64,000 bases of DNA from Pseudopyrenochaeta lycopersici (taxonomy: Eukaryota; Ascomycota; Dothideomycetes; Pleosporales; Pseudopyrenochaetaceae). Under the pieces are notes generated by a model. It had not been told where the DNA came from and searched no databases. It saw nothing but the letters and a program-made list of their open reading frames with translations. This document shows, one piece after another, positions 14,501 to 46,751 of the stretch (positions are counted from its first letter, which is position 1; each line of letters starts with the position of its first letter). A program made the position numbers and the translations under genes. The stretch lies in contig NHZP01000019.1 in the NCBI GenBank assembly GCA_003313425.1, forward strand, positions 806,001 to 870,000, given 5' to 3'.

Positions 14501-15285
14501 ATCAGCCAATTGTGTTTCATCAATAGTTTGGTATTTCGTGCTCAATTTCGTATACTTGTAGACTCGGCCGTAAGCAGCGGAAGTTGGCCGACTTCGAAAA
14601 AATTTGACAGCCTACAAGTCATGATTTCTTTCACCAAAACCAAATCGAATTCCGTTTCCAAAATTTCATTCTGAAGTCTTGGGAAACGTGTCATGGTATA
14701 AGAGATAGCGTCTTCTGTTTTAAGCAAGCGTCTTAGATTTTTTACCCAAAATTCACACTAGGCCAGAGTCAATCTTAACACCGAAGTACGGTATCTTCCT
14801 TGATCTAGAGTGTTCCGTGCCTCTATTTGAAAAGATATCGAAGAACTGCAGGTATGAACTTAGTAATCTCAGGGTTGGGGCCACGATCCTTCCTATCGCC
14901 AAGTTCCGTGCTTCTCAGCGGCTTGTTATTCGTTGCTACCAGAAATACTTTCTATGGTAGTGTTGCAACACTATATACCCATAGCTTAGCACGTCCCACA
15001 TGCTCCGAGGGAGACCACGGGCAGGAGTTAAATCCCTAGCCCACTAGACGAAAACGAATACCGACAAACAGACAAAACCATGGATGTGGTTTAGTTCTGC
15101 AAGCTGAGGCCAGCTAGCATCTTGCAAGGCAAAGAGAGATATTGCATGTGGATTCCCTCCGTCTAAGAAATATAAATACCCTCAAACTTTCATCGTTTGA
15201 GTTTCACAGACCTCAACTGGCATTCAATACTTATCAAGTCCACTTTCAATTCCACGAAGAACAACCGGAACATCTCCCGTTCACA
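11550..15285. other. Gene-poor stretch, no gene recognised
   Basis: Overlapping frames at 12134-12646 and 12288-12731, and others at 12825-13163 and 13334-13823, show no known domain, no consistent splice pattern and no clear start context. Their shadows on the other strand are equally long, which argues against coding. A TATAAATA at 15171-15178 is a likely promoter element for the gene starting at 15286. Confidence 0.4.
15171..15178 (+). promoter_or_regulatory. TATA box of secreted protein gene 2
   Basis: TATAAATA about 108-115 bp upstream of the ATG at 15286, in a position expected for a TATA-dependent promoter with a short 5' leader. The other two small secreted protein genes have similar boxes at similar distances. 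Confidence 0.5.
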
Positions 15286-15960
15286 ATGAAACTCTCATCC
15301 ATCGCTCTCCTATCAGCCGCCTTCGGCTCTGCGCTGTCTCAGACCGTTACACTTCCTGAGCTTCCTGATGGAAGTTATGTCATGAGCATCGATGAGGATG
15401 GCAAACAAACCTGGACGGACATAACTGCCAACGTCACCAGCGCTCCTCCACCCGAGATTCCGAAACGCGATGTAGCAACCACCAGCTCACGGCTCCGCAA
15501 GCGATTCAATTGGCCATCCGGTACTTACCCATATTGCCCGGGTGGAGATTGGTTCCTGCAAAATGACTTTTACCAGCATGGCTGGGACGCCTTCTATGCT
15601 AATTGCAAATCGGGCGGCAGTTATAAGTTCCCCAAGGGCGCCATTTTAGCAGAGTACCAAGGGACATCTGTGTCGTATATGTGCGCATTTACTACCAACC
15701 CGTGCAACGTGGACGAATGGAATGATGCTGTCAACTGGGCTGCAGGCAATTGTGTTGGCCGCAGTGGTGGTTGGATGGAGCCCGGTAGGTTGATTAATGA
15801 GGCTTGATGACGGACCATTGAGCTAACAATTAAATTTAGGATTTCTCCATGTTTCTGCGTGGAACAAGGTAAGGACACACCGTTAATGGATTTTGAGATT
15901 AGAGGCTAATTCTAGTTACAGAGATACGGTTTTGCCAAGGCGGGAGCTTCTATTTGTTAG
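15286..15960 (+). CDS. Secreted pro-protein with Kex2 site (secreted protein 2)
   Basis: Exons 15286-15784, 15840-15868 and about 15922-15960 give 188 residues; the 29-nt middle exon is in frame on both sides. The last acceptor could be six bases earlier (adding Leu-Gln) without changing frame. The start MKLSSIALLSAAFGSALSQ is a signal peptide. A basic site, RLRKR, lies near residue 74 and should be cut by the Golgi protease Kex2, releasing a mature domain of about 114 residues that begins with FNWPSGTYPYC. The mature part has six cysteines (including the ones in YCPGGD, ANCKSG, YMCAF and the C-terminal ASIC) and many tryptophans. I do not recognise the family. It is plausible as an effector or a secreted toxin-like protein, without evidence for activity. 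Confidence 0.8.
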
Positions 15961-17439
15961 AAGCAATCATCTACTTGGATTCAGAGGTGATGTACCTGGG
16001 ATAGTGGCGTGGAATTAAAATTGGCGGACAAAACTGTAGCGCGTGTCTTTTCTTACATCTAGATTAAGCTTCATGTGAAATTTTCGTAAATACGAAGCTC
16101 TAGATAGCAAAAATTGCCGCTATAACGTCATCACATAACTCCAACTCGCCTTTTACGAGCACTAGACCATATGAAACCAATCTCTTTCAGTTGAAGTTAC
16201 TTTAAATCCATCAAGCTTGCTACCCAGTGTTGCTGTCTTTGAGGAAGAGTGGTATTAATGGAATCTATGTCCTAGCAGTATTGGCTCACTGCTTTCCCAC
16301 TAGCAGCACCAAATGTCGGCAAAATCTGTATGTTGTTCAAATTCGGCTGCTCTATTTCATATGAAACTGCTTTTGCTGCATCTGCCATCATTCTTAGACC
16401 CCTGAGCATTCAGAAACAGTGGCGTTGACAGGCTTTGACAGCCCACACTTTCTCCGATGACCGCAGCTCCTCTTGCAAAAGTACAAGTCTATTACCTGAA
16501 AAAGAAAACAAAGGCCCCATCCCTACTTTCCTCCTTTTTCCTTGCCACCTTGCTTAACGCTGTTAATGTCTATTGAACTCTTGATCTCACCATAACGCGG
16601 CTACCTATATAGAAGATGCTGTATGATCAGGTCTCTTAGACAAATCTTAATCTAGCTACACGGGTTTTTCACCTTCAGCTAGGGTTGAGCCTCTCTAATA
16701 GCTTGGCTTCCAATTCCTGAACTCGTATTGGTGCTTATCCTAAAGCAAAATGCTTTTCTTCGAAACTTTTAAAAGCCTTTTTGAAAAGTCTATTGCTCGT
16801 TAGAGAATGGTTTAATCGAAGTCGGCCTATTGTGTCGGCTTGTAAAAGTAGGCCTTTGCCTGTCTTTGGAAATACTTTTTGTAAAGGAATGGACAGTATC
16901 GCTGAATTGAGACTTTAGCATTGCTACAAGACAAGAGTTATGGTCTTGGTTACTATTCTACCTAAGATTCGGATAGACGTCGCCCTTCGCGATAAGTGCT
17001 CCGTCTACGCTAACTACAAATAGGATTTCAATTCCTCAAAAAGTAGTAGGTTTTTTTTGCACATTTATTAATCTTCATTAGGAAATGTACAGATGCCTAG
17101 TCCCGGTGAAGTTTGACGCGTTAAGTTAATGCAGAAACTCTTCGATAGAATTTAATTTTTTTTGGCATAGTTGAATAATTCTATCATTTAATAAAAGCAG
17201 ACTGAAATGGTATACCTTTTAACCACTTAAGACCATCTTTATAGTAAGACTACGCGCCAATTACGTGAGACACACCGTATATAGACATTTTCATTTCACG
17301 CTAACAGGTGATAGGTATCATTAAGCCAGGAGATTCGCGTCTGGGATATTTTTCTGATAATGTCGAGAAAGTGCACACTTTCTACATACTTGCAATAACA
17401 TCTATGCAATGACCATCGTCTCTATACCCTCTTCTACAT
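15961..17439. other. AT-rich intergenic stretch
   Basis: No supported gene. The sequence is AT-rich with frequent stops and runs of T and A (for example around 17,050 and 17,155). It separates the secreted protein gene from the 3' end of the split kinase gene. Confidence 0.4.
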
Positions 17440-19628
17440 TTATTTGAAGCCCACATCGACAACGTCGTAGTATAGCGCATCTGAGTTTTGTACAGGAGAG
17501 GAGTACCTTGGGCGCCAGGGTAGAATATTCCTCAGTATTGAGTTGGCGTTGAACGTGACCATCTCCTGTGGCTTACCATCAATACCCACTGAGAAAAACC
17601 TAAGATTCTTAACGTCAATTTTTAGATGTGTTGCAACTTTCGAGGCGAAAACATCGCACTTCATCTTCTTGCTCAATGCCAAAGCGAAAGATCGCGTGTC
17701 TGTGGCTTCCCTAGCTACTGGTGCGAGTTCGATAGTAATTTGGTCATCCAAATATTCATAAACCTTCAGAATTTCAATAGTAGCCTCTTCTTGTGATACA
17801 TTGTAGACACCCCCGCTACTAATTGGTTGTAACACGGTGATAATGTCGCCATCTTGCAGCCCGGCGCTTTCCAGCGTTTTTCTGGGTATAATCGCCTCAA
17901 TCATGGTAGGTTTAATCTCTTCAAATAGTCTAAAGTTAGTTACAGGTCGCCAGCCTAGCATTTTACTAATGCGAGAGTCGAGATCTGATATCTTGTCTTT
18001 AAAAGTCGCGTAGAAGGTGCCAATTCCAAGAAGTCTTCGAGTCTTCATGTCGAATTGCTTAAGAAAGAGCATGACTGTGTGATTATTTTTCTCGTTTTTG
18101 AGAGTTATCAGCTTGTCACCAAAGACGGGCACCCCGGTTTGGTCACGCTTCTCAGCTATTTCTATCCAGAGGCGAAACTTTCCCTCTTTAAAAGCACTCT
18201 CAGCAGCAGCTTCTTCAATTGATATATGATCATGTTCCAGAACCGCATCCGGACGGATTGTGCCATTTTGACGGCTCACTACGCGCCAAGGGCGTATCAT
18301 GTCTCGAGCCGTACCAAGGTCTTCACTAATGGTCTTCAGAAGGTCACCGAATGCCGTTCTTAGCCGTACTTTGTAGTTCTTTGGGTTCGCTCTTGAGTTA
18401 GTGTGGTCACCCCAATGAGCAATATCGAGACCTTGATAGGTTTTGAAGCCAACCTCCGACGCGACCGCAACGTCCAAATAATGATGCGAATTCTCGTCTT
18501 TAATTTCATGGCGCTCAAAGGCATATCTGGGCAGATAAGCGGTAAAACCGGAAAGATTGGTTGTGAATGGGTCCTTCTTCGATTGCGAAGTACTTGATAA
18601 ATTCTGGGGCGACACTGACTTCACTAAGCCCATGCGCGGTTTATTAACGTCTCCGATGCTCGGAATAGCCTTACGGTTCTGTGAGAGAGCTTTTGAGGGA
18701 ATTAGTTCGACAGGTACAACATCAGTGGTGTTGAGTGTGTTGAATGGATCGTCTTTGCTGGACTGCATTATTGTATTCTCTCCGGTAGCCGTATCTCGCC
18801 TAGTGCTACGTGATTCAAGTGGAACTACCACATCTTTGTCTTGTTCTGGCTGTAGATTTTCGTGGGGCTGACGCCCTCGACTTTGAGGAACGACTGTTAT
18901 TTCCTCTGTCAGAGCCAAGTCGTCTTCCAAGCTATCAGAAGAGTCGCCTTCGTCGCCATGAAGACAGCAAATCCCGCAAAAAGCACCAGGAGAGGAATCA
19001 GAGTCATCGTTACAAATGATCATGTCCAAAACCTGTGCAGCAAGAGGTCTTGCTTGTCGATCTATCAGTGTCATCTTCCTTATCCAGCGCAATGGCATAT
19101 GATCTTGCTTCCGCCAGGACGCCTCCCACTCATGTATTAGAGAATCAGTCGCGTTTGGATTGGCATGGAAATGCGTTGCTTTAGAGAATTTATTATTGAA
19201 ATAGTCTTTTATCCAATCCACTGCGATGCCATGAAGCGCTGCTGCCATCTCGAAGAAAACACATCCTAAAGACCAGATATCCGAAGAGGTATTACGGGCT
19301 GAGTAGGTAGCGACTTCAGGTGCGCAATAGCGTGCGGATGCAGGGGTAAGACCTGAAGTTGTACTTCCAGCATCGTCGAGGAAGTCGCGGGACAGCCCGA
19401 AGTCGGAGAATAGAATATTATCTTTGGTGACTAATATGTTCTGAGGCTTAATATCCTTGTGACGAACGGATTGATCGTGAAGATACGTCAAGGCAGATGC
19501 AAGGCATCCAAAATATCGCTTTAAGTTGGAGCACATTTCAGCCGCCGTGGCTTCGTGTCTAAATGGTGAAAGTAATGCAGCATCAGTTGAAGGGCCCCTC
19601 ATAAATTCACATATGCGCTGCATATATG

Positions 19629-19636
19629 ATGCGAGA
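19629..19636. repeat. Left 8-bp target site duplication
   Basis: ATGCGAGA, identical to the copy at 21363-21370. Joining the flanks with a single copy restores the kinase frame (protein sequence DLASYMQR across the site). Eight bases is the target duplication length of hAT transposons. Confidence 0.92.
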
Positions 19637-19647
19637 CAGGGTTGCAT
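19637..19647 (+). repeat. Left terminal inverted repeat of hAT element
   Basis: CAGGGTTGCAT; pairs with the right terminus at 9 of 11 positions. Confidence 0.8.
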
Positions 19648-19780
19648 ATTTACTAAGTAATAGTAATTACTATTACTAAGTACCTTTAGTAATTACTAAT
19701 TACTAAGTAGTAAAAGCTCTTTAGTAATAGTAATTACTAATTAGTAATTACTAAGTTACTATTTAGTAATTAGTAAAATT
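19648..19780. repeat. Left subterminal TAGTAATTACTAA repeat array
   Basis: Multiple overlapping copies of a short palindromic unit built from TAGTAATTA and TTACTAA in both orientations. A matching array occupies about 21,190-21,350 at the other end. Arrays of short subterminal motifs are where hAT transposases bind in known elements; here that role is inferred. Confidence 0.7.
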
Positions 19781-20015
19781 CTAAAAATAGAAACTCTATA
19801 TTTTTATAGTTCTATATCTAAAGCTTATAATATTTTTATATTATAACTATATATAGTAAATTAAACTTATTAAATATAAAATTTTAACTATAGATTTATA
19901 AACTACTCTTTCTATCTATATTATTATATATAATATTCTAGAAATTTAGAAATAATAGGAATTAGAAAATATAATATAGTCTTACTAAAAAAATATATAT
20001 TAAATAAAAAACTAG

Positions 20016-20303
20016 CTAATCTAAACTACCTAAAGAATTTAAGAAATCTATAGCTTCTAAATTAGAAGCTATAAAATCTTTATATAAATTATAAAAGTTT
20101 CTACTTAATTTAATCTCTTCTAGAGTATAAAACTCTTTATTATAAAGATTTAAATTATTTAAAAAATAGAAATCTTCTTTAATAAACTCCTCTTTTAAAG
20201 TAAAATAATTCTCTTTAATAGCTAGTTTAGCTTTTATATTATCTACTTCTTTAGAAGTAATTATAAGCTTATTTATAAAGCTTTTAATTATATCTATATA
20301 TAA
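20016..20303 (-). CDS. AT-only open frame inside the hAT element, function unknown
   Basis: A 95-codon minus-strand frame without ATG, made almost entirely of A/T-rich codons. The product is lysine, leucine, asparagine and phenylalanine rich and looks helical (for example KEEFIKEDFYFLNNLNLYNK). In DNA this AT-rich, TAA and TAG should occur every few codons by chance, so the open length is notable. It lies head to head with the transposase frame starting near 20,334. It could be an exon of a second element protein or a remnant. I do not recognise it. Confidence 0.35.
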   Translation of the reverse strand, partial: LYIDIIKSFINKLIITSKEVDNIKAKLAIKENYFTLKEEFIKEDFYFLNNLNLYNKEFYTLEEIKLSRNFYNLYKDFIASNLEAIDFLNSLGSLD

Positions 20304-20333
20304 TTAGTAATAGTTATATATATATATAAATAG

Positions 20334-20927
20334 ATAACTTACTATAATAGTAATAATAAAATATTTATATTACCTAATAAATCTATTAATAGTAACTGTA
20401 TAGAGAACAAAGTAGAACTATATTTAAAAGAACCTAGAATAACTAAGAATATAACTCTAGAAAACTACTATAATACTAATAAAGATAGATTTCCTATAAT
20501 ATATAAAATAGCTAAAGACTATTTAGCTATATTAGCTACTTCTAATCCTAGTAAATCTACTTTTTCTAAAATAGCTAATATAGTAACTAAATCTAGAAAT
20601 AGATTATTATCTAGTACTATTAAAAAATTAATTATATTAAAGGAATTAAATAGTATAGTAGATAAAGAAGAAATTATAAATAATAATTTATTTTTTAAAG
20701 ATAATATAATTAGTAATTATAATAATAAACAAAAGAAAAGAAAAGAAAAAGAAAAAGAAAGGATAAATATAGAAGAAGAAGAAGAAATAGAAGAAGATTT
20801 TAATATAGAAGATAAAAGTACTACTAGTATAACTAGTTTTAATACTAGTACTAATTTAAGTTCTAATACTAGTAGAAATAGTAGAAATAGTAGAAATATA
20901 AGTCCTAGTAGTGATAATTTAATATAG
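20334..20927 (+). pseudogene. hAT transposase C-terminal fragment (dimerisation domain)
   Basis: An open frame of 197 codons with no ATG start, closed by TAG at 20925-20927. It contains VELYLKEPRI, then YYNTNKDRFPIIYKIAKDYL, then LATSNPSKSTFSKIANIV and RNRLLSSTIKKLIILKEL. This is the order and spacing of the hAT C-terminal dimerisation domain (family pattern: an E-x-YL block, a WW-x-N-like block, FP-x-L-x-x-A-x-x-L, then A-x-S-x-x-S-E-x-x-F-S and a closing helix). The usual SERxFS is here SKSTFS. After the domain comes a lysine-rich stretch, an acidic run and an S/N/T/R-rich tail. The N-terminal BED finger and RNase H-like catalytic core are missing. Confidence 0.75.
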
Positions 20928-21189
20928 TATTATATATTACTATACTATAATATATAGAATAATAAGATATTTTAGTCTAAATATTATTAATATATAATAG
21001 TAGTGTTTATTTAGTTAGTTTTATAAATTTAGTTAGTTTAATAGATTAATAAAGATTTTTTATTTAAATTTAATTACTTTTTTTTAATATACAATTTATT
21101 AATATATTCTAGTCTCTAATAGTTAAAGAATCTAGATTTTACTACTAGTAACTATATAATATAAAATATAGATTACTAAATTTTTACTA

Positions 21190-21351
21190 ATTTATAATTT
21201 AGTAATTACTAATTAGTAATTAGTAATTACTAAGTATACCTTTAGTAATTAGTAATTAGTAATTAGTAATTAGTAATTACTAAGTAAAAATTAGTAATTA
21301 CTAAATTAGTAATTACTAAGTAATTACTAGATTTACTAATTACTAAATTTT
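21190..21351. repeat. Right subterminal TAGTAATTACTAA repeat array
   Basis: Tandem and inverted copies of TAGTAATTA/ TTACTAA units, mirror of the array at the left end of the hAT element. Confidence 0.7.
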
Positions 21352-21362
21352 GTGCATCCCTG
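21352..21362 (-). repeat. Right terminal inverted repeat of hAT element
   Basis: Reverse complement CAGGGATGCAC; 9 of 11 match to the left terminus. Confidence 0.8.
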
Positions 21363-21370
21363 ATGCGAGA
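21363..21370. repeat. Right 8-bp target site duplication
   Basis: ATGCGAGA, second copy of the hAT target duplication, perfect match to 19629-19636. Confidence 0.92.
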
Positions 21371-22014
21371 TCTGCTTCAGCGACTGGGGACATCAGCAAC
21401 CCGAGATAATGCCTATCAGTATAGCTACCGATGTACCTGACAATGTGTCGATGCTGCAAGCTCTTGACGATCTTCATCTCGTTCAGGAACCCTTTCAGAG
21501 CCTCTTTCGAATTGTTACCAAACACGGCTCGTCTACGTACGCGTTTGAGTGCATACTGGCGGAAGCTGGTCCGACTTGATACTCTGTCAACCTGACCTTG
21601 ACCACCGCTCCCTAGTCGGCCCAGGATTTCGAAGGGTAGTATCTCCTCCGATGCATAATGTCGATGCTTTCCATTCTCAAGATCAAGTGACTTCGTTAGA
21701 ACAAGGTATTGCTCCTGTACTATAGCAGATCTAGTACTGGGGGCTAAAAAGCTCGGCAGGCCGCGGGCTTGAACCGGAAATTCCTGATCGTTGAACCCGG
21801 CATTCAGAAGCTGTTCGAGTTGATTTAGCTGTCCAATCGACCGAAGGACGATATAAGTTCGAGGAGATGTATGGGCAAGATGACCAGATCGCTCAAGCAG
21901 CGTTGAGATCTGATCAATTTCAAAATCTTGGAAATGCCGGCGAGGCTGCGAGTATTCAAAGAACTCCGCGAGCCGCTCTTCCGCGGTCTTGAATGGTGGA
22001 TGAGTCGACTCCAT

Positions 22015-44754: not shown

Positions 44755-44987
44755 CCCACAGTGTTACGAGGCATACTCCAAGCCACTGCTGCTTTGTTTC
44801 CATCACCGAATTCGACCTAAGCTGCGATACACGTGATCTCACAAGTCAGCTGACGCAGTAGTATCATCGGCTTCATCCCGCGGCAACCCACGACACAGCT
44901 TCTAAATTTTCTGGTCTTCCCGAGATCATATCATTTCTGGGCATTGATTCAGACAAATAAGTTCATCAAACGACCCTTCTCTCAATA

Positions 44988-46751
44988 ATGGCGTTCGCGT
45001 ACAAGCCTCTTCCACACGAGCGCAGCATTCGCCTCCTGCAACTCCATCCTGGGTCGACGGATGACCCCATCCAGTGTTTCTTATTTCCTGCCGATCTCGA
45101 TAGTGACGGCCTCCAGTATGAAGCAATCTCGTATGCATGGGGCGATGCGAACGATCGCAAATCAATCATCTGCGATGGGTGCGTTGTGAGCATTACGCGG
45201 AGCCTCTTCGAGGCCCTGCAACGCTTCCGGTATGTCGGTACCGTGAGGGTTGTTTGGGCCGATGCATTGTGTATTGACCAGCAAAATACCGAGGAGAAAA
45301 ATATCCAGGTGCACCTCATGCATTTGATATATCGATATGCCACAAAAGTACTGATATGGCTCGGACTCGAAGACGATGAGGCGGTGCAGGCCGTGTTCGA
45401 TGCCTTATGCCAGTATTTGACCGGGCTCAACTCTGGGGAAAGTTATGCTTACACAGTCGGTGATCACGTTGTAACACAATTCCGTCGGAAGCTGTCGTTG
45501 TCTTTCGACCCTGAAACAGCAGAGATCGATGCTCTGGGTAGGATTTGTTCGTGTTCTTGGTTTAGCCGGGGTTGGGTGATACAAGAGGCGGCCCTATGCT
45601 CTGAGGTAGACATCTTCTGGGGCCAGGCACAAATACCGTTCGAATGGATTGGCACAGCTGCTTCGGAGGTCTTTGCAGATCCTGGCCGTTCGCAGCTTCT
45701 TATGGATTCTGAGGGGTTTCCTAAAGTGTATAATTGTATCTTGATCTATGCCGCCAAGCAATATCAAGATAGGCAAAACCATCCGGAGCCCTGGAGTTCT
45801 TTCTTTTTTCTGCTCCTCAGTTGCCTGAGGTTCACATTTAGTGATGCAAGAGACAGAGTGTACGGATTGCTAAGCTTACGCACGAGTGACAATGACGCTT
45901 TGAACGGACATCCTTTCATAAAACCGGATTACGGTATCACAGTTCAACAGTGCTTCGAGAAAATTACAAGACGAATGCTTTTTGAGCAGAAAGACTTGAG
46001 GGTGCTCTCGGCCGTTCAACATGAAGTTGGTATCGAAGACGATTGGCCCTCGTGGGTGCCTGATTGGAGTCGTGCGACATCACCGGTCCTAGCTGACGTA
46101 TCAGATGAGCATGTAGCATTAAGAGATGAAGCTATAGTAACGGAAGAGATTTGTGGAGCTCACAAGTGTGTTTGCATTCAGGGTTTCGTTGTCGGTGTCA
46201 TTGATCAGCGATTCGATTTAACCCTAGACGCAGCCAACTTTCACACGGACTTTGACCAATTCAGTCGCGCAAAAGCTCTGCTTCTTCACCTGCAGGATTT
46301 ATACAGCACTGATTGCGTTGCGCACACTTTCGGGAAAGCAATTCAAGAGTACCCATACCACTCCGGATACAAGGAGAATCTCTTTGAGAGCTATCGCTTG
46401 TTTCTTGAGTGGGATCCTGTCGATGGCAGCGACTTGTCCCATGCCTTTGAGCATAACACTTCATCGCCCTATCAATGGGCAGCTGTATTCTATGAATACT
46501 TTACGCGAGCTCTTACTGCGCGGAGACCGATCAAAACGGAGCAAGGCATGCTTGGGATAGCTCACAACGCCGTGCGCACTGGTGATGTTGTTGTACATTT
46601 AATAGGCGGCTCGATACCTTTCGTTCTCAGGCCCACCAACGGTCTTTGGAGATTCGTGGGAGAGTGTTATGCATACGATGTTGTGGAAGGCGCGGTCATC
46701 GAGGAGTGGAGGAAAAGCGGACAATCGGCAGAAAAGTTCTGCATCTATTGA
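44988..46751 (+). CDS. HET-domain protein 1
   Basis: Single exon, 587 residues. The HET domain (heterokaryon incompatibility, PF06985) spans about residues 44-200 with its three blocks: YEAISYAWGD (44-53), VVWADALCIDQQNTEEKN (88-105) with VLIWLG (121-126), and SWFSRGWVIQEAALC (190-204). The C-terminal part is like many HET proteins of this class, ending in a region with VHLIGGSIPFVLRP. Proteins of this family trigger cell death or vegetative incompatibility in fungi when unlike individuals fuse. The gene starts 233 bp after STN1. It looks intact with no frameshift. Confidence 0.93.
   Translation: MAFAYKPLPHERSIRLLQLHPGSTDDPIQCFLFPADLDSDGLQYEAISYAWGDANDRKSIICDGCVVSITRSLFEALQRFRYVGTVRVVWADALCIDQQNTEEKNIQVHLMHLIYRYATKVLIWLGLEDDEAVQAVFDALCQYLTGLNSGESYAYTVGDHVVTQFRRKLSLSFDPETAEIDALGRICSCSWFSRGWVIQEAALCSEVDIFWGQAQIPFEWIGTAASEVFADPGRSQLLMDSEGFPKVYNCILIYAAKQYQDRQNHPEPWSSFFFLLLSCLRFTFSDARDRVYGLLSLRTSDNDALNGHPFIKPDYGITVQQCFEKITRRMLFEQKDLRVLSAVQHEVGIEDDWPSWVPDWSRATSPVLADVSDEHVALRDEAIVTEEICGAHKCVCIQGFVVGVIDQRFDLTLDAANFHTDFDQFSRAKALLLHLQDLYSTDCVAHTFGKAIQEYPYHSGYKENLFESYRLFLEWDPVDGSDLSHAFEHNTSSPYQWAAVFYEYFTRALTARRPIKTEQGMLGIAHNAVRTGDVVVHLIGGSIPFVLRPTNGLWRFVGECYAYDVVEGAVIEEWRKSGQSAEKFCIY

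What the first reader, a model, noticed from the sequence alone, without database searches (positions are those of the whole stretch)
17440..22014. Protein kinase fused to the C-terminal half of USP7/Ubp15, without the protease
In one 946-codon frame (interrupted only by a transposon) a complete Ser/Thr kinase domain is followed by a region that matches the USP7 sequence order: the stretch after the protease, the ICP0-binding domain, and the terminal domain. The cysteine protease is missing. A kinase that uses USP7-type substrate-recognition domains would be a new design: it could phosphorylate proteins normally chosen for deubiquitination. The kinase residues, the HKD, DFG and APE motifs, and the ICP0-domain landmarks are all present.
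Basis: partly seen in the sequence, partly recalled or inferred. Interest (0 to 1): 0.88.

Follow-up and report, generated by a model that had tools for sequence, protein, structure and literature searches.

The report
Fungal kinase fused to USP7 recognition domains
In this fungus a protein kinase has been joined to the partner-binding middle of the deubiquitinase USP7/Ubp15 without its protease (this copy is cut by a transposon), and sister kinases carry pieces of other cell proteins, which looks like a family of kinases that borrow bait or docking domains.

Summary
An open 750-codon frame (17443-19692, minus) carries a kinase C-lobe, an FCGICC tail motif, a linker and a clear USP7_ICP0_bdg region (E 4.5e-57). 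A second frame (21363-22014) carries the start codon, an N-terminal domain and the kinase N-lobe. Between them lies a 1,726-bp hAT element with an exact 8-bp duplication. The fusion joint lies inside one open frame and does not depend on the transposon. The USP7 part is UBL1-3 only (human residues about 559-872): it begins behind the protease and ends where USP7_C2 begins, so the claimed terminal domain is absent. The genome keeps a separate Ubp15 (MATH-UCH-ICP0-C2), 49% identical, and the fused copy evolved under constraint. The kinase family has at least 14 loci. Seven run on past the tail motif; six of these seven carry a piece with a separate relative in the genome (Ubp15; a LIM-RhoGAP, GAP not found; a DnaJ protein, J domain not found; an EH-domain protein; two others). 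I read it as kinase fusions in which a borrowed, mostly non-catalytic domain is bait or docking site. Orthologs, transcripts and folds could not be tested.

The parts
21640..22014 (-). Start codon and N-terminal domain (about 125 aa) shared by the kinase family
   Evidence: ORF B aa 1-125; aligns from the first Met with L026 (64.5% over ORF B residues 1-218) and with 9 family rows, L026 included, in alignment A2; no Pfam family other than kinase in ORF B up to E 1
21364..21630 (-). Kinase N-lobe: glycine loop GSGGQG, lysine in ALKRV, glutamate in NEMKI (roles by recalled kinase anatomy)
   Evidence: Pfam Pkinase E 1.7e-11, profile 2-86; motif positions
21363..21370 (.). Target-site duplication, right copy (atgcgaga)
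19637..21362 (.). hAT-type transposon remnant, 1,726 bp, inverted ends CAGGGTTGCAT / CAGGGATGCAC
   Evidence: 11 other places at 93-98% identity covering at least 1,500 of the 1,731 query bases 19636-21366 (40 of 156 candidates scored)
20334..20927 (+). hAT dimerisation-domain ORF (197 aa) inside the insert
   Evidence: Pfam Dimer_Tnp_hAT E 2.9e-14
19629..19636 (.). Target-site duplication, left copy (atgcgaga)
19024..19617 (-). Kinase C-lobe with RHKDIKPQN, DFG, APE motifs
   Evidence: Pfam Pkinase E 2e-24, profile 75-259; motif positions
18964..18981 (-). FCGICC tail motif, the point near which the repeat-bearing sister kinases end
18529..18963 (-). Linker of about 145 aa, open only in this frame
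   Evidence: residues 246-388: 0 stops in this frame, 3 to 9 in the other five
17443..18528 (-). Ubp15/USP7 UBL1-3 region (ORF A aa 389-750), 49% identical to the genome's own Ubp15
   Evidence: human USP7 about 559-872
17521..18297 (-). USP7_ICP0_bdg (PF12436), full profile
   Evidence: E 4.5e-57; one of 3 places with this family in the genome
17845..17862 (-). UBL2 pocket stretch GLQDGD (aligned with human E759-D764)

Best explanation
SHOWN: one open frame joins a protein kinase C-lobe to UBL1-3 of a Ubp15/USP7-type protein, without protease and without USP7_C2. A separate Ubp15 exists in the genome. The fused part diverged from it under protein-level constraint. In the one allele seen, a hAT insertion splits the kinase. 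Sister kinases carry, after the same kind of tail motif, pieces of different conserved cell proteins. INFERRED: the kinase is the constant signalling part, and the C-terminal piece is a mostly non-catalytic copy of a cellular hub used as bait or docking surface. Something that binds Ubp15's UBL1-3 (a cell partner or a foreign protein) would dock on the copy and so be brought to the kinase, which then phosphorylates it, itself or a third protein. The mix of hubs across sister kinases makes a sensor role (integrated bait, as proposed for plant kinase fusion proteins) slightly more likely to me than plain retargeting of a kinase to Ubp15 substrates.
For: Domains and frame. Own Ubp15 with MATH_2 (9.8e-13), UCH (1.4e-46), ICP0 (3.6e-84), start of C2 (2.8e-10). 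Clean boundaries: fused copy matches Ubp15 ORF residues 326-689, UCH ends at 296, C2 begins at 679. Constraint: differences at codon positions 1/2/3 are 131/108/217 of 361 codons; 500 neutral simulations to the same divergence gave at least 4 stops each (mean 12) and on average 30% amino-acid identity, against 0 stops and 50%. Tree: 6 C-terminally extended and 6 repeat-bearing kinases fall on two sides of one branch, 97/97 (L019 and L035 not in it). Same design: L030 = kinase, linker, LIM and middle part of a LIM-RhoGAP whose separate relative has RhoGAP (E 2.2e-17), not found in the fusion; L037 ends like a DnaJ protein (relative's DnaJ E 1.8e-12), no J domain in L037; L019 has an EH domain (E 4.2e-15) with a separate relative at 47%; L031 ends in a piece 64-71% identical to a C1 gene. 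Two sister kinases, L027 and L028, have 13.5 and 5.3 tandem TPR copies at 91 and 90% DNA match, a kind of repeat enriched in fungal NLRs (PMC4986451, passages). Plant model: PMC10260397, passages.
Against: Of the 7 extended kinases only 3 (window, L030's first LIM, L031) have the catalytic kinase part and cargo in one stop-free frame; L019, L025, L026 and L037 are broken into frames (introns or decay). L030's first LIM is below Pfam's cut-off (20 of 22.9 bits), though a match to the C49 gene supports it (52%, E 8e-12). L026's cargo is RhoGAP itself, possibly catalytic, with no close separate relative. L025's piece has no Pfam hit; its Hsp70-like label is recalled, with weak Pfam support in a relative (HSP70 E 0.034). 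L031 lacks the HKD and DFG aspartates, so catalysis is not common to all. E759 is lost in the window copy. Only 2 of 6 repeat-bearing sisters have highly conserved repeats: L034 has 78%, and L029, L032 and L033 show no such array. The tree is unrooted, its bootstrap had not settled, and L031 is a long branch. The link to immunity is by analogy only.
Confidence: 0.45

Rival explanations
1. Retargeted kinase: UBL1-3 docks the kinase on normal Ubp15 partners (or competes with Ubp15 for them), and phosphorylation regulates those proteins; no immune role.
For: UBL1-3 is the USP7 part reported to bind ICP0 and GMPS, and its UBL2 pocket binds UHRF1 too (PMC4457826 passages); two of three key pocket residues are kept; kinase motifs are present.
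Against: E759 replaced by glycine, although E759A alone abolished ICP0-peptide binding in human USP7 (PMC4457826). Sister kinases carry unrelated cargo, and one lacks catalytic residues.
Confidence: 0.3
2. Non-functional relic: an accidental fusion by segmental duplication, now decaying; the hAT insertion is one step of the decay.
For: This allele is split by the insert. Sister L025 has two in-frame stop codons in its N-terminal match, and L035 has six.
Against: No stop codon in the two pieces of the window gene apart from the insert; codon pattern of long constraint; insert relatives 93-98% identical elsewhere, so the element's spread looks young against the saturated third positions of the fusion.
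Confidence: 0.2
3. Two neighbouring genes (kinase; short UBL protein) that happen to share a frame.
For: Methionines occur in the linker, so an internal start is formally possible.
Against: No stop from kinase C-lobe through linker to UBL3; linker open only in that frame; sisters L030 and L031 also read through from kinase to cargo in one frame.
Confidence: 0.04
4. Assembly chimera or contamination.
For: None found; only one assembly was seen.
Against: The joint lies inside one continuous open frame of a 1.1-Mb contig; kinase and UBL parts both have relatives in the same genome.
Confidence: 0.01

Closest known systems
USP7/Ubp15 deubiquitinase
   Same: UBL1-3 region with full ICP0-binding profile; UBL2 DGD motif
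   Different: No MATH/TRAF, no UCH protease, no USP7_C2/UBL4-5; kinase and family N-domain instead; E759 position is Gly
Triticeae kinase fusion proteins (Sr43, Lr9, Pm4; PMC10260397 passages)
   Same: A kinase fused to variable extra domains across different proteins; integrated-decoy model proposed there
   Different: Fungal; shared sequence was not tested; no phenotype known
Fungal NLR / non-self-recognition proteins (PMC4986451 passages)
   Same: Two sister kinases bear TPR arrays with high internal conservation
   Different: No NACHT or NB-ARC in the window ORFs; the kinase family is not an NLR
LIM-RhoGAP kinase fusion L030 in the same genome (the parent's name Lrg1 is recalled)
   Same: Same design: kinase plus non-catalytic part, separate gene with the catalytic domain kept elsewhere
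   Different: Different cargo (LIM domains)

Membership tests
Eukaryotic Ser/Thr protein kinase | Whole Pkinase profile with G-loop, VAIK Lys, HRD/HKD Asp, DFG, APE | tested here: met
   Profile 2-86 and 75-259 in the two pieces; motifs located. Split by the insert in this allele.
USP7/Ubp15 deubiquitinase | UCH cysteine-protease domain | tested here: not met
   No UCH hit in either ORF and no remnant at 15000-19692; so not a USP7 enzyme
USP7/Ubp15 deubiquitinase | ICP0-binding UBL1-3 region | tested here: met
   PF12436 full length E 4.5e-57; PDB USP7 E 7.7e-20
USP7/Ubp15 deubiquitinase | USP7_C2 (UBL4-5) terminal region | tested here: not met
USP7 UBL2 substrate pocket | E759, D762, D764 | tested here: inconclusive
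   Two Asp kept, E759 is Gly; binding untested
Kinase fusion protein with integrated bait | Constant kinase with varying C-terminal domains copied from other genes | tested here: met
   7 of 14 family loci looked at run on past the tail motif; 6 of these 7 have a separate relative of the cargo in the genome; only 3 of 7 in one open frame with the catalytic part
Kinase fusion protein with integrated bait | Recognition or defence phenotype | not testable with these tools
   No genetics available
Fungal NLR | NACHT or NB-ARC domain | tested here: not met
   Pfam scan of the window ORFs up to E 1; sister ORFs were scanned in part and two of their lists were capped at 25 rows
hAT transposon (the insert) | 8-bp duplication, CAGGG-type ends, hAT dimerisation domain | tested here: met

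The most novel reading that the evidence does not exclude
A fungal class of immune-type kinase fusion proteins: one kinase lineage has repeatedly captured copies of cellular hubs without their catalytic parts (Ubp15 UBL1-3, LIM region of a RhoGAP, tail of a J-protein, an EH domain, others) as integrated baits that report attack on those hubs, paralleling plant kinase fusion proteins but arisen independently.
Probability: 0.33. Interest if true: 0.88.

Novelty: new variant of a known kind. Interest (0 to 1): 0.72.

Why it matters
I found no description of a kinase carrying USP7 recognition domains without the protease in the listings (some lists were capped). Together with its sister fusions it suggests a rule: one kinase module, interchangeable borrowed domains. 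If the domains are baits, they name which fungal hubs are attacked by mycoviruses or competitors, and would show that plants and fungi reached kinase-bait fusions separately. If they are docking sites, they give natural kinases aimed at deubiquitinase partners. Either reading can be tested with purified pieces.

Tried and rejected
Rejected: presence of USP7_C2. Rejected: a remnant of the protease or MATH domain in the linker or downstream (best linker hit E 0.96). Rejected: the ICP0 domain as a chance match (E 4.5e-57). Rejected: two genes sharing a frame. A first sign of a leftover of the protease's last strand (FTAYL) is too short to count.

Led nowhere: the search for homologous proteins (database off), so orthologs in other fungi were not searched. 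dS could not be computed (NG86 gave -1, YN00 an error). Structure prediction failed and was then off (57, 58). NCBIfam gave generic kinase hits far below their cut-offs and one unrelated weak hit. The tool holds no relatives of this genome. Literature: (listings; searches show 15 of 49, 15 of 59 and 10 of 13) showed no kinase-USP7 fusion. PMC2838846 (one section and passages) reports kinase-associated domains in 30 fungi and does not hold a word starting with ubiquitin in its main text. PMC12295320 and PMC9599802 (passages) give UBP15 as MATH with USP7_ICP0_bdg, the latter also USP7_C2; the passages shown name no kinase fusion.

Full report
WHAT IS IN THE SEQUENCE. On the minus strand, ORF A (17443-19692) is 750 codons without a stop, and ORF B reads from an ATG at 22014 to the insert. 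Pfam places the kinase N-lobe in ORF B (profile 2-86, E 1.7e-11). In ORF A it places the C-lobe (75-259, E 2e-24) and the whole USP7_ICP0_bdg profile (1-241, E 4.5e-57). The motifs GSGGQG, ALKRV, NEMKI, RHKDIKPQN, SDFGL and CAPEV are present (their roles are recalled kinase anatomy). The start Met is shared with the nearest sister, L026. Between the ORFs lies a 1,726-bp element, 19637-21362, with an exact 8-bp duplication and CAGGG-type ends and a hAT dimerisation ORF. Eleven other places in the genome match it at 93-98% over at least 1,500 of 1,731 query bases (40 of 156 candidates scored). The coordinates leave 652 + 2186 nt = 946 codons if one duplication copy is counted; the letters were not joined. 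The fusion joint itself is inside ORF A and needs no repair.

WHAT THE USP7 PART IS. Residues 389-750 of ORF A match residues 326-689 of an ORF of the genome's own Ubp15 at 49%. That gene has MATH, UCH, ICP0 and the start of USP7_C2; its 3' exon was read by eye. In it UCH ends at residue 296 and C2 starts at 679, so the fused copy runs from just behind the protease to the first residues of C2 and then stops. Against human USP7 it spans about 559-872 (numbering of a 1,102-aa chain taken as the human one), close to the region 560-870 reported to bind ICP0 (PMC4457826, passages). No trace of UCH, MATH or C2 was found at 15000-19692 outside the UBL part. In the UBL2 pocket the two aspartates D762 and D764 are kept and E759 is glycine; the genome's Ubp15 has all three. 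Since E759A alone abolished ICP0-peptide binding in the human protein, the fused pocket may have a changed preference.

AGE AND CONSTRAINT. Fused copy and Ubp15 differ at 131, 108 and 217 of 361 codons at positions 1, 2 and 3; dS is saturated. Of 500 neutral simulations to the same nucleotide divergence, all had at least 4 stops (mean 12) and on average 30% amino-acid identity, against 0 stops and 50% observed. The UBL part was thus kept as protein for a long time. The insert, with 93-98% relatives, looks younger, though this dates the element's spread rather than this insertion. The simulation starts from the present Ubp15 and is a rough test.

THE FAMILY. Searching the genome with ORF B gave 30 places, the window included. 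In 12 other loci the match starts by residue 23 (C42 in two pieces), and I fetched all 12 (L025-L035 and L037). A further one, L019 on C8, starts at residue 86 in that search, but its N-domain lies in another frame; I count it too. The remaining places (C13 with six stops, C15 at 27%, and others starting at residue 105 or later) were not examined. So at least 14 loci with the window. One, L035, is too broken to place. Six (L027, L028, L029, L032, L033, L034) end 9-21 residues after an FCG(I/A)CC motif. Five of these have TPR repeats in front (for L033 in a separate frame upstream) and one (L029) has WD40. The other seven, window included, run on after the motif. In a tree of C-lobes 6 of the extended and the 6 repeat-bearing kinases fall on two sides of one branch (97/97, 0 of 500 shuffles as low; bootstrap not fully settled; unrooted; L019 not in it).

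OTHER CARGO. L030: kinase, long linker and a first LIM in one 900-aa frame (that LIM is under Pfam's cut-off, 20 of 22.9 bits), then LIM and middle region matching a separate LIM-RhoGAP gene (36% over 436 residues, E 1e-79; 63% over its best stretch). The relative has RhoGAP (E 2.2e-17, profile 1-84 in the ORF searched); no significant match to that ORF was found in L030 or in L047, which reaches 5.3 kb further, beyond one 17-residue collinear stretch. L037: its tail matches the end of a DnaJ protein, 31% over the last 154 residues and 51% over the last 66, down to the same final TATYVY; the relative has DnaJ (E 1.8e-12), and neither the kinase ORF nor the two tail ORFs of L037 do. L019: tail motif, linker and EH domain (E 4.2e-15) in one 518-aa frame with the end of the kinase; the kinase core lies in other frames; separate EH relatives at 47% and 33%. 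L031: a 1,447-aa frame whose residues 1305-1418 match a C1 gene at 64% (71%); its kinase lacks the HKD and DFG aspartates. L025: degenerate; its piece is 58% and 43% identical to two other loci, and the Hsp70-like label is recalled with weak support. L026: RhoGAP behind the kinase on the same strand (E 1.9e-11) but in other frames, with no close separate relative; here the cargo could be catalytic. So 6 of 7 extended kinases have a separate relative of their cargo in the genome, and 3 of 7 show the catalytic kinase part and cargo in one open frame.

HOW IT MAY WORK. A kinase on a flexible linker with a copied hub domain can bring whatever binds the hub close to the kinase. Two readings remain. 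As docking, it would phosphorylate Ubp15 partners. As bait, it would sense a foreign protein aimed at Ubp15 and signal. The second has support from the variety of hubs in sisters, from near-identical TPR repeats in 2 of the 6 repeat-bearing sisters (L027, L028; L034 78%; no such array in L029, L032, L033), a trait enriched in fungal NLRs (PMC4986451 passages, measured there on amino acids), and from the plant kinase-fusion model (PMC10260397 passages). It lacks any genetic evidence. A HET-domain ORF 23 kb away (44961-46748, E 3.2e-29) is suggestive at most; how common such genes are in this genome was not counted.

VERDICT. The architecture is real and unusual; the protein is not a USP7 enzyme. 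In this assembly the gene is broken. Its main interest lies in the pattern across the family. Orthologs, transcripts and structure were beyond reach here.

Noticed in passing
L030:563-4762 and L047:5342-5818 (C11), with L048 (C49): A second kinase fusion: kinase with LIM and middle region of a LIM-RhoGAP, GAP domain not found; a separate gene with RhoGAP is on C49.
   Followed up: yes
L037:1810-5449 (C30) and L053 (C17): Kinase whose tail matches the end of a DnaJ protein (31% over 154, 51% over the last 66 residues), without a J domain.
   Followed up: yes
L019:1086-3409 (C8): Kinase of the family in several frames, followed by tail motif, linker and an EH domain; separate EH relatives on C6 and C16.
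   Followed up: partly
L031:1305-5645 (C52): Family kinase lacking the HKD and DFG aspartates, with a tail 64-71% identical to a C1 gene.
   Followed up: partly
L026 (C19:677000-685000): Nearest sister kinase, on the same contig, followed by RhoGAP-like stretches in other frames; it is unclear whether they are one gene.
   Followed up: partly
L025 (C33): Sister kinase with in-frame stops, followed by an actin/Hsp70-like piece (label recalled).
   Followed up: partly
L036:3776-8143 (C9): 1,456-aa ORF with MATH, weak UCH, weak USP7_ICP0_bdg, MORN repeats and a RING finger: a ligase-like relative of USP7 in one frame.
   Followed up: no
window 44961-46748 (+): HET-domain (heterokaryon incompatibility) ORF 23 kb from the kinase fusion.
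   Followed up: no
L027:4906-6609 and L028:5413-6079: Tandem TPR arrays of 126-bp units with 90-91% match next to family kinases.
   Followed up: partly
window 19637-21362: Very AT-rich hAT remnant family with many copies in the genome.
   Followed up: partly
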